Origin: a virus
Reading direction: 5' to 3' (one strand)
Virus record (IMG/VR): IMGVR_UViG_3300025156_000022
Span: 1 to 25,636 of that record
Length of the DNA stretch: 25,636 bases
The notes below the pieces were generated by a model. That model was not told where the DNA came from, did not search any database, and saw only the letters and a list, made by a program, of their open reading frames with translations. How positions within the stretch are numbered: the stretch's first letter is position 1; each line of letters starts with the position of its first letter. The position numbers and the translations under genes are program-made. This document shows positions 3,607 through 15,041 of this stretch, one piece after another.

Positions 3607-4632
3607 TTAGGTTAATGCTTGATTCATTCGTATTGCCATATATGGATTCTGTGGATGATTTGTCTCATCTTTCAGAATTTCACCTGCAAACTCCATTGTT
3701 GACCAATCATCCCCAATCAAAGCAGTATCACCGGAAGGAGTGAGCGAAACAGACCAAACTTCCAATTCCTGCTGATTACCGGCAGGATTATCAGAAACAA
3801 ATCTGAGTCTACCAATAACCTGTGTATTTGCAAAAGCCTTGATCATAGTATAAGTCAAAGCGGCATATCCATAAGTTACATGAACAGTTTCACCATCAGT
3901 TACAGTACCACCGGAGAGAAATTTAATACGACCAATTTTCTCATCACTCAAAGTAGCATCAATTTTATAATCAGTTCCTTCAACGTAGGTTACTGTGTCA
4001 GCATCATCCTGCACAAGAACAACAGGAGTTGTTGCGTAAATAGTTCCACCAGTAAGGGAATTAACAACGGCAGCTCCCGTGCCACTTCCAGTGATAACTT
4101 CATCATCGACATAAGAAGTGTCATTGGTTAATGCAAGTACAAGAGTTCCCGAAGTAGAATCGCCGGTAATTGACACAACAATACCTACAGCTCCACCGGC
4201 ACCAGTTACCGTTTCACCCAATACAAAAATTACTGAACCCCCATCATACGGAAGAGTCCAAGAGGATACTCCTCTAAACTCAAGATCAGTACGCATATCA
4301 AGATTTGCCGTGATTGCTTCTGCGACAACATTACCGAGAAACTGAGTCTCAGTGGATGCATCGCCCAAAGTAAGCAATGCCATATTTTCTTTGTTAACTT
4401 CATCAAGAGTAAATGTAAGTCCCGGGGTAATCTGGGAAATAATTTCCTTGTCCTTTGCTCGTAAACCACCACGTGAACTGTAATGATCCAATTTCTCAAG
4501 AGCAATAGTGAATGTAAAAGCCGGGGCATTCCCTAAATCACGTTCTCCCTGATAAACACTGGAGACAAGTTGATCAAAGAATACAACTCCTTTTCCTAAT
4601 GTGTAATTGTCTGGATGTGGGGCTATAGCCAT
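3607..4632 (-). CDS. Major tail (tube) protein
   Basis: A 341-residue protein in the slot between the tail terminator and the tail chaperone, with an AAGGAGG ribosome binding site. The N-terminal (FTFTIALEKLDHYSSRGG, ~residues 40-60) and C-terminal (LEVWSVSLTPSGD, then GDDWSTMEFAGEIL, ~290-325) parts look like tail tube proteins of siphoviruses. The middle (~130-200) is a Gly/Thr/Val-rich insertion (ETVTGAGGAVGIVVSITG and a related GSGTGAAVVNSLTGG stretch) of the type seen as surface-exposed domains. A strong terminator follows, fitting a highly expressed structural gene. No sheath gene is seen beside it, which supports a non-contractile tail. Confidence 0.8.
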   Translation of the reverse strand: MAIAPHPDNYTLGKGVVFFDQLVSSVYQGERDLGNAPAFTFTIALEKLDHYSSRGGLRAKDKEIISQITPGLTFTLDEVNKENMALLTLGDASTETQFLGNVVAEAITANLDMRTDLEFRGVSSWTLPYDGGSVIFVLGETVTGAGGAVGIVVSITGDSTSGTLVLALTNDTSYVDDEVITGSGTGAAVVNSLTGGTIYATTPVVLVQDDADTVTYVEGTDYKIDATLSDEKIGRIKFLSGGTVTDGETVHVTYGYAALTYTMIKAFANTQVIGRLRFVSDNPAGNQQELEVWSVSLTPSGDTALIGDDWSTMEFAGEILKDETNHPQNPYMAIRMNQALT

Positions 4633-8062: not shown

Positions 8063-9490
8063 CTATTTTAAAAATTCGTACTTTATTTTTCCACAATCAT
8101 AAATCCTATAAATATAATTACTTCGTGTGTTTTCTAATTCGGATTTATTAGTATCAAAATTAGAAAATAACTTCTGTAATCTTTTTCTACGAAATCCAAA
8201 TTTATGTTTTCGTTTGCCATTAATTATATAAGAATAGTCAATTAGAATTTCTTTTACTTTTTTAAATCCAAGTATAGAATATAATTTCCCTGAAAACATT
8301 GATAGATCAGCAAATGTATAAACAGATTGAAAAACAACATTCCGTTGAAAATGTTTAAATAATTTACTTGCTCCTCCAATTACTTGACTATTTAAACAAG
8401 TTGCAAATCGAACAAGATTAAATGACTCCTTATCCTTTTTAAAAGACATAACTTGCAAAAGTTCATCTTGATAAAACAACCCATAATGGATTGAACTTAT
8501 TACATATCCTTGAATATGGTTTTTTATTAAAAATTTTTTTGCTATATTTTTATCAATTTGAATGCAAAAACATTTTCGGGCAAATATTTTAGATTCAATT
8601 TTATTTGTCACCATTCGTAAAATTGATTTAATAATTTCGTTTTTAAACTTCCAATCATCACTAAAAATATGAATTAATCGATATCCTTCTTTTTTGCATA
8701 AATCAGTCTTTGTTTTTAAATGATATTTATCAAAATTAGGAATTGCAGAAGAATGCCAATACAATCCATTATATTCAATCGCAATTTTAAAATCCGGTAA
8801 TATGATATCTAATTCTTTTGGAGTAATAATATTTCGTTGGTTTGTTTCGACTATAACATTTAAAGATTGTAAAAAAGCAACTACTTCTGTTTCCTCTTTA
8901 GAAATTTTACCAACACATTTAGGGCAACCACATCCACGTAAATGCACTTCTGGAGATTGTAAATATTCCCCATGTTCGGGACAAACTATAATTGACTGTT
9001 TTTTAGATTTTGTATAACAAAATTTATCGTAAACAAATTTGTCTTTGTGTATTTTATTGGCTTGTTTAATAAATTCGTTAGAAGTTCGATTAAATCCAGC
9101 ACACCTTGGACACCCATTTCCAGTTAAATGAGTCCGGGGAGTTTATTTAAATTCCCCATGCTCTTTACAAATAACAACAACTTTTTGACTATCCAATTTG
9201 TATTTAACTTTGGAATAATCATATAAATACCCATGAATCTTTTTAGCTTTCCTAATAAATTTAGAAGTACTATGTTTACATCTAATGGATGTTTGTTCCC
9301 CTTTACATATAGGGCAACCTTTACCACTAATATGATTTGAAGCTAATTGAAAAAATTCTCCATGTTTAGGACAAATTACACTAATTTGGCTATTCATTCC
9401 CAAATATATTGAATTTACATAGGAATAAAAATTAATATGTGCCTTATTTGCTTTTTGGATAAATTCTTGAATTGTTAATTTTGCAGGCAT
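8063..9490 (-). pseudogene. Hef-like (Vsr-fold, EDxHD-type) homing endonuclease gene interrupted by one in-frame TAA
   Basis: Read from the ATG at 9490 (GGAG site) the frame encodes 475 residues if the TAA at 9145-9143 (codon 116) is ignored. Residues 1-190 hold three repeats of the zinc-ribbon type 'F...a..h....Y.Y......v.v.C..HG.F.......H..G.GCp.C'. Residues ~195-280 look like a Vsr-type nuclease: ELDIILPDF (D228), EYNGLYWHS (E239, H246), SDDW (D278). The rest resembles the Hef-like C-terminal domain (NHIQG, GGASKLFKHF, ILGFKK, DYSY). Around the stop the repeat reads HGEFK-stop-TPRTHLTGNGCPRC; a CAA to TAA change would explain it. The gene sits between scaffold and capsid with its own promoter and terminator. 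It is either a dying free-standing homing endonuclease or it yields two separate pieces. Confidence 0.88.
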
Positions 9491-9519
9491 TTTAAATCTC
9501 CATTTAAAACTCATAAAAT

Positions 9520-9574
9520 AAAGAGGGAAAATGATTGAGTATATCATTTTTCAGGAGCTACCCTATCCCTCTTT
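9520..9574 (-). promoter_or_regulatory. Nested stem-loops upstream of the homing endonuclease
   Basis: On the minus strand AAAGAGGGA pairs with TCCCTCTTT (9 bp). Inside the loop AATGAT pairs with ATCATT (6 bp, 7-base loop). The outer stem is followed by ATTTTA. It may act as a weak terminator after the scaffold gene or as a leader controlling the endonuclease. Confidence 0.55.
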
Positions 9575-12231: not shown

Positions 12232-14628
12232 TTAATTACGAACCTTCCTACGTGTCATCTGCATCATTTTTCTGGATAACAAGTATCTTAAACTATCACC
12301 ACAATTCGAGATAATCACGCCATTACCCAATGCAAAAGTGTGTGTTTTAGGGACAGTCAAACAATATACATCTTTTCTTTTTTGTAGTAGTTCTACGGAT
12401 ATGATTTTTATTGCATAATTTTGTTCCACATTTACGTGAACAGGTTTTAATTTTAGCGTATTTATTGGTGGTAAATTTTGTGGAACATATTGGACAGATT
12501 CGTTCAACATTATCAATTCCTGATTTTCTTCGATAACTGGATTTACAATTGTTTGAACAAAAGGAATTAACATTTTTTCTTTTAGAATTGTGAATTTTTC
12601 CACAAAAGACACATTTTCGGACATAACTTCGATGAAGTGCCTCTTTAGTATCTTCATAATGCTTAGTATGCCATTTTTTACCCTCTGACCCTTTATGCCA
12701 TTTTTTAGCTGCATCCTGAGCTTTTTTGGACCATGGACGGGGATTTTGTTCCATATGCATGGATTGGTGTCGGTCTGAGCGCAATAATTCCAAATCTTCA
12801 TTTTGATTTTTGAATTTATCTGCTTCTTTATGGTGTACGTCATATCCTTTAGGAATTTCACCATTAAAGAATGTGTAAACTGTTTTATGTAATCTTTTCC
12901 CAGCGTGTTGAAAATATTCCCCACAAAGATAAAACCTCTCTCCATCAAACTCTTGAATTGTTTTTGATATAATTTTAACTCTTTCCATTTTGACTTCTCC
13001 TTTACTTTTGGTTTGCTTACGATACATAAAATATCAGAAAGCATCTGTGAAGTCAATTCTGAATAAATTTCAATTAATCCTTTTGTAGTTAAAAATTTTT
13101 GGTTTTCCGTACATTCAACAGAAAATCCATCCGAAAAAGTAACTTTAATTATTTTCGCCTTTTTTTGAGTTAATCGACAATTATAAAAATCAACAAATTC
13201 CCCATTAACAGTGAGTATTTTTCCTACTACATCAATAAATTCACCAATTAATTTTACGCCTTTATCTGTAATTATAGTAGTATCATATACCACACAGTGA
13301 TCTTCATTATCGCTATCCACATCTTCGGGCTTTTTCTCATCCCTTTGCAACATTGGTATAGTACGCAAATGATGCCTAGCCGCTGCAAAAAAATATAAAT
13401 GTGGTGTCTCTAAAGTACCCTTTTTGGTAGCATTCAACATTTGACGAATCAACGCCCACCCAGCAACACGTGAACCGGAACCTTTATAAGCTCTTGTCCA
13501 ATGACACCCATGCAATGCTAAATTATTGGCAATAGATGATCCATCACGAACTTCCCAAATTGAGGTATCAGCCGGACCAACATAGCACTTTAAACCATAC
13601 TCCGTTAATAATGCCTTGTCAACTGCTATAACTCTTTCAGCTATTTCTTGGGAAGTTGCTTGATCCCCTTCATTTACTTTTCCAGTCCATCCATAAATTT
13701 CCATTATGATGATCATTGAGCCTCTTGGGATATACGGAATACCTTCTCCATCAGGTTGTTCTCCATTTGCTTCAACTCCATAAGTAACAGACCAAGGTTT
13801 GGATGAACCCCAATCGAAGCTTCTATATAATCGCCATGATTTAGGAATCTTAAAAGGCTCCAAAACCTGCTTTTTCTTGTCCCAAACGTCTGTAAAGAAC
13901 CCACCAATGATCAAATCCCACGACCCAAGTATCCAAGCATCACGCAACATTTTGTTTCCTTCTGTCAAAGCCAACAATTTTGCTTGATATGTGGGATCAG
14001 CATCCAATAAAACCTTATTTTCTTCCAAAGAACTCTGAATATGTGTCCGTTTCTGGCCTTGTTCATCCGTAAAAATCGTTCCAGGTGGTCCATGATCGAT
14101 AAATCTTTCCTTAACCCACCCATTTCCAGGCCCAGATGGGTTGCAAGTTGATCTATATTTCTTTGGGACATCTTTATTAGATGACCTATTACAGGACATT
14201 AACTTCAAATAAAGATCAGAAAAAGGCCAATTTGTTAATTCTTCCCACCCTATCCAAGGATACTCATGACCATGATACTGCCAATAATCATCCAAAGTAC
14301 GTGCATAACTCAATTTTAGGATTTCTCCAGCTTCAAATGTCCACACTTTTTTAGAATTATTGTATTTAGCACTCGGAAATATCTGAGGAATCCACTTTTT
14401 AGTCTTGGCAATGACATCCTCTAACTCAGTTGTGGCCTCACGGAGCATTAATCCTCTCCAATCGGGTCCAAGACCCTTACCAACATCCTGTAAATAATCC
14501 ATTAAGAGAACATCAGTTTTACCACCGCCTCTGTTACCATGCAATAAACATTCCCATATGGGGCAAGAAAGAAAGTTTTTCTGTGAACCGGGATAAGGTT
14601 TCCAAATATCATTACGTTTTTTTAACAT
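12232..14628 (-). CDS. Terminase large subunit precursor with intein
   Basis: The ATG at 14628 overlaps the stop of the upstream gene (ATGTTAA) and is preceded by GGAG; a TTG six codons earlier is less likely. The precursor has 798 residues; removing the intein (445-775) leaves 467, normal for TerL. ATPase: Walker A GNRGGGKT (31-38), Walker B-like WIGWEE (125-130, E129/E130). RNase H-like nuclease: D272 in FDWG, D354 in VGPAD, and D778 in the DSLRYLL motif of the C-extein. The motor cuts and packages DNA at the portal. The spliced junction reads DNEDH-CGDSLRYLL, matching the conserved end of the nuclease domain, so the protein is functional only after splicing. Confidence 0.95.
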   Translation of the reverse strand: MLKKRNDIWKPYPGSQKNFLSCPIWECLLHGNRGGGKTDVLLMDYLQDVGKGLGPDWRGLMLREATTELEDVIAKTKKWIPQIFPSAKYNNSKKVWTFEAGEILKLSYARTLDDYWQYHGHEYPWIGWEELTNWPFSDLYLKLMSCNRSSNKDVPKKYRSTCNPSGPGNGWVKERFIDHGPPGTIFTDEQGQKRTHIQSSLEENKVLLDADPTYQAKLLALTEGNKMLRDAWILGSWDLIIGGFFTDVWDKKKQVLEPFKIPKSWRLYRSFDWGSSKPWSVTYGVEANGEQPDGEGIPYIPRGSMIIIMEIYGWTGKVNEGDQATSQEIAERVIAVDKALLTEYGLKCYVGPADTSIWEVRDGSSIANNLALHGCHWTRAYKGSGSRVAGWALIRQMLNATKKGTLETPHLYFFAAARHHLRTIPMLQRDEKKPEDVDSDNEDHCVVYDTTIITDKGVKLIGEFIDVVGKILTVNGEFVDFYNCRLTQKKAKIIKVTFSDGFSVECTENQKFLTTKGLIEIYSELTSQMLSDILCIVSKPKVKEKSKWKELKLYQKQFKSLMERGFIFVGNIFNTLGKDYIKQFTHSLMVKFLKDMTYTIKKQINSKIKMKIWNYCAQTDTNPCIWNKIPVHGPKKLRMQLKNGIKGQRVKNGILSIMKILKRHFIEVMSENVSFVEKFTILKEKMLIPFVQTIVNPVIEENQELIMLNESVQYVPQNLPPINTLKLKPVHVNVEQNYAIKIISVELLQKRKDVYCLTVPKTHTFALGNGVIISNCGDSLRYLLSRKMMQMTRRKVRN
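12304..13296 (-). other. Intein in terL (331 residues) containing an out-of-frame HNH gene
   Basis: Starts at C445 with block A CVVYDTTIITDKG, followed by KLIGEF. Block B is GFSVECTENQKFLTTKG. Block F is DVYCLTVPKTHTF and block G is GVIISN, then C776 as the +1 residue. N-terminal and C-terminal splicing parts add up to roughly 150 residues. The ~200 codons between them are the same DNA as an HNH endonuclease gene read in another frame. The usual block B histidine (T-x-x-H) is glutamine (TENQ) and the usual penultimate histidine is serine (ISN). The insertion is at the third catalytic motif of the nuclease, a highly conserved site typical of inteins. Confidence 0.92.
12347..12988 (-). CDS. HNH homing endonuclease nested in the intein in a -1 frame
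   Basis: 213 residues from the ATG at 12988, which has an AAAGGAG site 8 bases upstream; an earlier in-frame ATG at 13027 lacks one. The HNH core is at residues ~46-78: PKGYDVHHKEADKFKNQNED, then LELLRSDRHQSMH (H52/H53, N63, H74/H78). Two zinc ribbons follow: C126-C129 with C144-C148, and C165-C168 with C183-C187. The last ~20 residues (after C192) are lysine/arginine-rich and are simply the alternate-frame reading of the intein's C-terminal blocks. The gene lies wholly inside the intein coding sequence, shifted by -1, and would be made by internal initiation. Homing of the intein is the likely role. Confidence 0.9.
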   Translation of the reverse strand: MERVKIISKTIQEFDGERFYLCGEYFQHAGKRLHKTVYTFFNGEIPKGYDVHHKEADKFKNQNEDLELLRSDRHQSMHMEQNPRPWSKKAQDAAKKWHKGSEGKKWHTKHYEDTKEALHRSYVRKCVFCGKIHNSKRKNVNSFCSNNCKSSYRRKSGIDNVERICPICSTKFTTNKYAKIKTCSRKCGTKLCNKNHIRRTTTKKKRCILFDCP

Positions 14629-15041
14629 TCTATTACCACTCCACAATGATCATTCTCCCGTTCTTCTTCAATATGCCGTATCTTGATTTCTTTTCCCAAT
14701 TTAGGTAATAATCTCGAATTGGCTTGTTGACGTTCTTTACTTGAAGATCGTTTACGTCTACTTGGTAATAACCTACTGATTATATTAGCCTTTTTAATTG
14801 TTTCTTTCCCATTATTATCTTTCCGAGTTTTCATTATTTTTAACAATTTGGCTCGGCTCTTTGGATCATTCCATCGTTTCTTCATGGCATTGCTATAATT
14901 TCTCCGAGTCGCATCATCAAAATTATCATGGAAGGTGCAAACTTTCTTTGCAACTATATCTGGATCATGCATTGGTTTATTTTTCCTTTTCAATGCACTT
15001 GCTGACATTTTACGTCTGGTGGAAGAACTAATTTTTATCAA
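14622..15041 (-). CDS. NUMOD3-like DNA-binding protein between terS and terL
   Basis: 139 residues. Residues 5-25 (SSSTRRKMSASALKRKNKP) match the NUMOD3 nuclease-associated DNA-binding motif, and ATRRNYSNAMKKRWNDPKSR (~45-64) is a second, related unit. The rest is basic and low complexity. No nuclease domain (GIY-YIG or HNH) is present. The start is probably a TTG at 15041 overlapping the terS stop; an ATG at 15008 would cut into the first motif. The stop overlaps the terL ATG. It may be the remnant of a homing endonuclease or a DNA-binding accessory of the terminase. Confidence 0.65.
   Translation of the reverse strand: MIKISSSTRRKMSASALKRKNKPMHDPDIVAKKVCTFHDNFDDATRRNYSNAMKKRWNDPKSRAKLLKIMKTRKDNNGKETIKKANIISRLLPSRRKRSSSKERQQANSRLLPKLGKEIKIRHIEEERENDHCGVVIEC

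What the first reader, a model, noticed from the sequence alone, without database searches (positions are those of the whole stretch)
12304..13296. Intein with an HNH endonuclease gene nested in a different reading frame
Inteins normally carry their endonuclease in frame. Here the terL/intein frame is open across ~330 codons, while a complete HNH gene with two zinc ribbons lies inside it in the -1 frame with its own AAAGGAG site. In AT-rich DNA over 200 stop-free codons in the non-endonuclease frame suggest selection to keep the intein frame open. The endonuclease would be made independently of terminase precursor and splicing, and the tail of the HNH frame overlaps intein blocks F/G, so ~20-30 codons are truly dual-coding. 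I know of no well-described case of this layout.
Basis: partly seen in the sequence, partly recalled or inferred. Interest (0 to 1): 0.85.

Follow-up and report, generated by a model that had tools for sequence, protein, structure and literature searches.

The report
Intein hiding an out-of-frame endonuclease gene
A protein-splicing element in a phage's DNA-packaging gene carries its DNA-cutting 'homing' gene in a second, overlapping reading frame instead of in its own; this is not an oddity of one genome but a widespread layout in phages, shown in public records only as the packaging gene, and it would let the cutting enzyme be made without the splicing protein.

Summary
The intein is 13296..12304 (331 aa): relatives with a 90% identical TerL lack exactly these 993 bp. 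A complete HNH gene (12988..12347, 213 aa, AAAGGAG ribosome site, two zinc ribbons) lies inside it in another frame; the intein frame stays open throughout.

It is not unique. Searching only for the HNH motif gave 153 loci with this HNH family. In 111 the HNH is nested in an uninterrupted intein (hosts mostly recognisable as TerL), at frame +1 (108) or +2 (3), never in frame. In the HNH stretch the intein frame has 0 stops where about 250 are expected; free-standing relatives match expectation (115 vs 114). The window alone would not prove selection (P about 0.09). The overlapped peptide is not conserved and is predicted disordered between two well-folded Hint halves; the HNH is conserved and has its own ribosome sites. 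The window's TerL lineage shows empty sites, a mini-intein with the same HNH just outside TerL, and the nested form; elsewhere the HNH separates split-intein halves.

Best reading: a mobile intein whose homing endonuclease is translated separately from an overlapping frame. Splicing and cleavage are inferred. New variant of a known kind.

The parts
13297..14646 (-). TerL N-extein (ATPase domain and most of the nuclease domain; annotated start TTG 14646, ATG 14628 also possible)
   Evidence: ORF; PHROG_979 terminase large subunit 1.9e-30
12304..13296 (-). Intein, 331 aa, Cys1 to Asn331, inserted after the conserved His of the TerL motif D-H|C-x-D-x-x-R-Y
   Evidence: Pfam Intein_splicing 6.9e-9; exact 993-bp gap against empty alleles L178/L179; AF2 Hint fold, Foldseek to DnaE inteins 1.4e-5
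13258..13296 (-). Intein block A (CVVYDTTIITDKG)
   Evidence: own profile of 100 relatives
13078..13128 (-). Intein block B (GFSVECTENQKFLTTKG); the usual His of TxxH is Gln here
12997..13003 (-). Shine-Dalgarno AAAGGAG of the HNH gene, 8 nt before its ATG
   Evidence: relatives AAAGGAGG, AAAAGGAGG, CAGGAGAG at the same place
12347..12988 (-). HNH endonuclease gene, 213 aa + TAA, in the frame one base behind the intein frame; N-terminal HNH_3 domain, two zinc ribbons
   Evidence: AF2 mean pLDDT 92.8
12304..12381 (-). Intein blocks F/G (KRKDVYCLTVPKTHTFALGNGVIISN); 12381..12347 is read in both frames
12232..12303 (-). TerL C-extein (CGDSLRYLLSRKMMQMTRRKVRN)

Best explanation
A mobile TerL intein whose homing endonuclease gene is nested out of frame. 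The long TerL frame is translated through the intein; the Hint domain (its first ~100 and last ~40 residues) folds and splices itself out, joining the TerL exteins; the ~190 residues between the two halves are merely the +1-frame reading of the HNH gene and only need to be free of stops. The HNH protein starts at its own ribosome site inside the intein, is made independently of the precursor, and cuts intein-less terL genes of co-infecting phages near the conserved nuclease-motif codons, so that intein plus HNH are copied in by repair. Shown: the layout, its recurrence, the open-frame selection, HNH conservation, ribosome sites, empty / mini-intein / nested / split states. Inferred: splicing activity, separate translation, cleavage and homing.
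For: Intein blocks A, B, F, G and Hint fold. 153 loci with this HNH family found by HNH motif only; by separate profiles of the intein ends 111 have both ends in one open frame, 108 at HNH+1, 3 at HNH+2, 0 in frame, 105 of them distinct at 90% HNH identity. Host-frame stops in the HNH stretch: 0 observed, 250 expected by synonymous shuffling; controls calibrated: free-standing 115 vs 113.7, split 45 vs 50; 108 of 119 open vs 15 expected. Shine-Dalgarno of 5 nt or more at the HNH start in 36% against 3% in control windows. HNH frame: substitutions pile up at its third positions as in free-standing relatives; intein-frame identity in the overlap 0.40 vs 0.39 in non-nested genes of the same divergence. 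AF2: intein residues 103-285 mostly below pLDDT 50, both ends 86-97; HNH 92.8. Hosts: 52 of 60 match one TerL PHROG, 47 of 60 Pfam Intein_splicing. Empty alleles at 90% TerL identity and 126-aa mini-intein with the HNH directly downstream of TerL in L183; 981-bp insert in Acinetobacter phage Highwayman against intein-less phages, TerL otherwise up to 99.5% identical.
Against: No splicing, translation or cleavage data. The window's intein has Gln for the usual block B His, so its own splicing could be impaired. Only about a third of HNH starts have a strong Shine-Dalgarno. The TerL differences around the Highwayman insert would fit co-conversion, but the same 3' stretch also varies between intein-less phages. 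The HNH's target site was not determined.
Confidence: 0.82

Rival explanations
1. The HNH is made not from its own start but by ribosomal frameshifting out of the TerL/intein frame, so that it is still a part of an intein fusion in some molecules.
For: Only 36% of nested HNH genes have a Shine-Dalgarno of 5 nt or more.
Against: ATG starts in 94 of 107 and 12-fold enrichment of strong ribosome sites; same proteins occur as free-standing genes and directly behind TerL.
Confidence: 0.06
2. The intein no longer splices; TerL keeps the insert as a loop, as proposed for the ShiLan domain in a phage methylase.
For: Window block B His replaced by Gln.
Against: Cys1 in 106 of 107 and terminal Asn followed by Cys/Ser/Thr in all 107 inteins measured (the end was located by that motif); complete Hint fold; the insert splits the conserved TerL nuclease motif, so TerL without splicing would probably be dead.
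Confidence: 0.06
3. The HNH is a packaging accessory nuclease next to terL (like HK97 gp74), not a homing enzyme.
For: Free-standing relatives lie directly beside terL in several phages.
Against: Patchy presence/absence between near-identical terminases, insertion at one conserved terL motif in very different phages, closest solved structure by sequence is the homing enzyme I-HmuI, though weakly (E 0.0085).
Confidence: 0.07
4. The contiguous frame is irrelevant: intein halves are made separately (split intein) and the open frame is accidental.
For: 13 loci do have intein ends in different frames or with stops between; some nested HNH genes keep a +1-frame start in the motif where split C-halves begin.
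Against: 108 of 119 flanked loci open against 15 expected; 0 stops against 250.
Confidence: 0.03
5. Assembly or sequencing indels put an in-frame HNH out of frame.
For: None.
Against: Same phase in ~100 independent loci including finished genomes (NC_019930, OZ038341); second contig identical here.
Confidence: 0.005

Closest known systems
Inteins with in-frame homing endonuclease domains (PI-SceI type LAGLIDADG)
   Same: Hint splicing domain interrupted, between blocks B and F, at the place where endonucleases sit; mobile, sporadic, in a conserved gene; some TerLs here carry one of each kind (L064, L097)
   Different: There the endonuclease is a domain of the intein protein; here it is a separate gene in another frame and the inserted stretch of the intein protein is meaningless filler
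ShiLan domain (Arsenault, Gosselin, Gogarten 2025, PMC11855218)
   Same: Phage HNH homing gene inserted out of frame with the host frame left open; HNH with zinc fingers
   Different: No splicing domain, no detectable ribosome site, sits in a non-essential methylase and is thought to be retained in the protein; here a full intein surrounds it, in an essential gene, with ribosome sites, in ~100 diverged lineages
Fractured genes / split inteins with free-standing endonuclease between the halves (Dassa 2009, known to me and as cited in PMC11766414; AceL-TerL and GOS-TerL split TerL inteins, PMC11766414)
   Same: Endonuclease gene located at the intein's split point; the same HNH family does this in 9-13 loci here, e.g. 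Lactobacillus phage CL2
   Different: In the window and 110 others the intein halves are one continuous frame running through the HNH gene
I-HmuI and other HNH_3 homing endonucleases of phage group I introns
   Same: HNH_3 domain, homing role; ORF often in its own frame within the intron
   Different: Carrier is an intein, so the surrounding frame must stay translatable; sequence similarity to I-HmuI is weak

Membership tests
Intein (class 1) | Blocks A, B, F, G with nucleophile at position 1, Asn at the end, Cys/Ser/Thr at +1 | tested here: met
   C1, N331, +1 Cys in the window; 106 of 107 relatives start with Cys; block B His is Gln in the window
Intein (class 1) | Hint fold | tested here: met
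   AF2 ends pLDDT 86-97; Foldseek to Ssp/Npu DnaE inteins, E 1.4e-5
Intein (class 1) | Precise in-frame insertion absent from other alleles of the gene | tested here: met
   993-bp gap against L178/L179; 981-bp in Highwayman
Intein (class 1) | Protein splicing | not testable with these tools
   needs expression of the precursor
Intein with in-frame endonuclease domain | Endonuclease read in the intein frame | tested here: not met
   0 of 124 intein-flanked loci
HNH homing endonuclease (HNH_3, I-HmuI-like) | HNH motif and fold | tested here: met
   Pfam HNH_3 27.9 bits against cut-off 24.8; HH..N..L signature in 105 of 110 nested genes; AF2 92.8
HNH homing endonuclease (HNH_3, I-HmuI-like) | Cuts the empty allele and drives its own copying | not testable with these tools
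   only indirect: empty and filled alleles among close relatives
ShiLan-type out-of-frame element | Out-of-frame HNH with host frame open | tested here: met
ShiLan-type out-of-frame element | No splicing domain in the insert | tested here: not met
   complete Hint domain
Fractured gene / split intein | Intein halves in separate ORFs | tested here: not met
   window and 110 others have one open frame; met in L011, L086, L106, L141, L142, L147, L148, L170 and probably L017, L033, L088, L102

The most novel reading that the evidence does not exclude
A large, so far unrecognised class of mobile inteins in phage terminases keeps its homing endonuclease as an independent gene overprinted in the +1 (rarely +2) phase of the intein frame; the same HNH family moves between free-standing, mini-intein-adjacent, nested and split-intein states, so nested overprinting is a stable way station between a free gene and a split intein.
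Probability: 0.65. Interest if true: 0.82.

Novelty: new variant of a known kind. Interest (0 to 1): 0.76.

Why it matters
Inteins are the textbook case of an endonuclease fused to the splicing protein. Here cutting and splicing are coupled only by DNA, not by protein, so each can evolve and be regulated on its own, and the host frame is selected only to be stop-free: a clean natural case of overprinting with one constrained and one unconstrained frame. The loci show empty, mini-intein plus neighbour gene, nested and split states, which makes the open question of how inteins gain, lose and separate from endonucleases directly testable. Practically, annotated phage TerL genes hide these HNH genes, and the split examples are new candidate split inteins.

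Tried and rejected
Assembly/indel artefact: rejected (independent loci, finished genomes). Using the window alone as proof of selection: rejected (P 0.09). Amino-acid constraint on the intein-frame peptide in the overlap: none seen. Co-conversion tract around the Highwayman insert: at first striking (all 15 differences within 176 bp) but intein-less phages differ in the same stretch, so kept only as suggestive. HNH tree: several changes of state (nested 16 on the tree, at least 3 forced by well-supported branches) but too weak for direction. Split C-half starts in the HNH motif RRxSGxDNE: 9 of 12 against 4 of 17 free, a lead only. Foldseek of the HNH gave only a weak I-HmuI match. Literature: open-access library only; no description of an intein with an out-of-frame endonuclease found in eight searches bearing on it; Dassa 2009 is not held.

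Full report
WHAT IS THERE. The window is a 25.6-kb record of IMG/VR. On the minus strand lie terminase small subunit-like, terL, portal, scaffold-like, major head and tail genes. The terL frame 14646..12232 (804 aa) matches TerL (PHROG_979, 1.9e-30) and Pfam Intein_splicing. The intein runs from Cys 13296 to Asn 12304 (331 aa), the finding's own coordinates. Inside it, one base behind in phase, is a complete HNH gene: ATG 12988, AAAGGAG 8 nt before it, TAA 12349-12347, 213 aa. The ORF list starts it at 13027, but the conserved beginning and the ribosome site point to 12988.

CHANCE. Shuffling synonymous codons of the HNH gene leaves the intein frame free of stops in 9% of draws for the window. 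So one sequence would not prove anything. I therefore searched for the HNH itself.

RECURRENCE. tblastn of the HNH in annotated phages gave 20 records. Several are free-standing genes beside terL (PAE1, Sphaerotilus SN1, Shemara, Exiguobacterium EauM-23, Poludnitsa, BP10). In Tetrasphaera phage TJE1, Acinetobacter phage Highwayman, Rhodobacteraceae phage LS06 and MT838676 the HNH lies out of frame inside a TerL intein; the first three records show only 'terminase large subunit' there and MT838676 has no annotation. A motif scan for W-H-x-[ST]-x-x-G-R-x-W-H in viral and prokaryote contigs gave about 159 stretches; with the earlier loci, 153 hold this HNH family.

INDEPENDENT CLASSIFICATION. To avoid defining 'nested' by the absence of stops, I made profiles of the intein's N-part (blocks A/B) and C-part (F/G) and searched three-frame translations with stops read through. 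The profiles were themselves built from the open cases, but they find the ends whatever the frame. Result: 124 loci with both ends around the HNH. 111: same frame, no stop (108 at HNH+1, 3 at HNH+2). 4: same frame with stops. 9: ends in different frames, C-part always at HNH+1. 0: intein in the HNH frame. 19 loci have no intein. 105 of the 111 are distinct at 90% HNH identity, 56 clusters at 50%; GC of the loci spans 31-69%.

SELECTION FOR AN OPEN FRAME. Stops in the intein phase within the HNH stretch: nested 0 observed against 221 (+1) and 29 (+2) expected; free-standing 115 against 113.7; split 45 against 50. 108 of 119 intein-flanked loci are open in +1 against 15 expected, never above 31 in 200,000 draws. 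The +1 phase is also naturally poorer in stops (6.4 against 17.3 per free-standing gene), which explains why +1 is the common phase.

WHAT EACH FRAME ENCODES. Between related nested loci, substitutions gather at HNH third positions just as in free-standing genes, and the intein-frame identity in the overlap (0.40 at 25-35% nucleotide divergence) equals that of the same phase in non-nested genes (0.39, only two pairs; 0.30 vs 0.27 at 35-45%). So the HNH protein is selected; the overlapped intein peptide is not, except for lacking stops. AlphaFold2 agrees: intein residues 1-100 and 291-331 at 86-97, residues 103-285 nearly all below 50, i.e. the HNH overlap; Foldseek matches DnaE, DnaB and RecA inteins. 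The HNH model is at 92.8. In all 111 loci the HNH's 3' end runs 6-91 nt into the profile of block F.

EXPRESSION. 36% of nested HNH genes have a Shine-Dalgarno match of 5 nt or more before the start, against 3% of control windows of equal width; 94 of 107 use ATG. The window's nearest relatives have AAAGGAGG (L003), AAAAGGAGG (L187) and CAGGAGAG (L052).

HOST. 52 of 60 host ORFs match one TerL PHROG and 47 of 60 Pfam Intein_splicing; the long ones tested are TerL too or carry Hint domains, two with a second, in-frame LAGLIDADG intein. The insert sits at or within a few residues of the conserved TerL nuclease motif D-H-x-x-D-A-x-R-Y.

ALLELES. In the window's own TerL lineage: L178 and L179, 90% identical TerL, empty site; L180, L181, L184, L185 empty; L183, a 126-aa mini-intein at the same place and the same-family HNH as a free gene between terL and portal; L003, L187 and (by its intein) L052 nested. 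In Acinetobacter phages, Highwayman has a 981-bp insert absent from intein-less phages, one of them 99.5% identical in TerL; the residue after the insert is Cys in Highwayman and Leu in all five intein-less alleles read.

SPLIT FORMS. In Lactobacillus phage CL2, Brochothrix phage BL3, a Staphylococcus borealis contig and others the N-part ends in a stop, the HNH (in BL3 only a remnant) follows, and the C-part is a separate small ORF overlapping the HNH end in +1. Split TerL inteins are known (AceL-TerL, GOS-TerL; PMC11766414).

MECHANISM AND WHAT IS INFERRED. The data fit an intein that splices TerL and a homing enzyme made from its own start in an overlapping frame. Not shown: splicing, separate translation, cleavage, homing. 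The window's block B has Gln for His, a caution for its own activity.

KNOWN OR NEW. In-frame endonuclease inteins, free-standing HNH genes and split inteins with an endonuclease at the split are known; an out-of-frame HNH in a phage methylase without any splicing domain was published in 2025 (ShiLan, PMC11855218). I found no description of an intein with its endonuclease in antiphase in the open-access library; subscription papers were not searchable. Verdict: real, widespread, new variant of a known kind.

Noticed in passing
window 13078-13128: Block B of this intein reads C-T-E-N-Q where nearly all relatives read T-x-x-H; the usual His is Gln, also in L002.
   Followed up: partly
window 8063-8947 and 9143-9547 (minus): Two pieces of a large free-standing homing endonuclease (PHROG_3339 / PHROG_559) between scaffold-like and major head genes; broken at the same place in L002.
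   Followed up: partly
L011, L017, L033, L086, L088, L102, L106, L141, L142, L147, L148, L170: terL interrupted by this HNH (a remnant in L017) with intein halves in separate ORFs: candidate natural split TerL inteins; CL2 and BL3 are isolates whose truncated TerL annotation may be wrong.
   Followed up: partly
L141, L088, L147 and other split loci: The C-half ORF often begins at a start codon in the +1 phase of the HNH's conserved motif RRxSGxDNE (9 of 12 against 4 of 17 free-standing), which might pre-set the +1 phase.
   Followed up: partly
L064, L097, L183, L187: TerL genes with more than one intein: a conventional in-frame intein (LAGLIDADG in L064 and L097) plus one at the nuclease motif (nested HNH, or mini-intein in L183).
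   Followed up: partly
L156 3937-5504: Intein N- and C-parts in different frames with an overlap of open frames at 4143-4179: a real frameshift or an assembly error in this MAG contig.
   Followed up: no
L013 against L192-L196: The 3' end of terL (last ~250 bp) of Acinetobacter phages varies in blocks even between intein-less phages, as if often replaced by recombination.
   Followed up: partly
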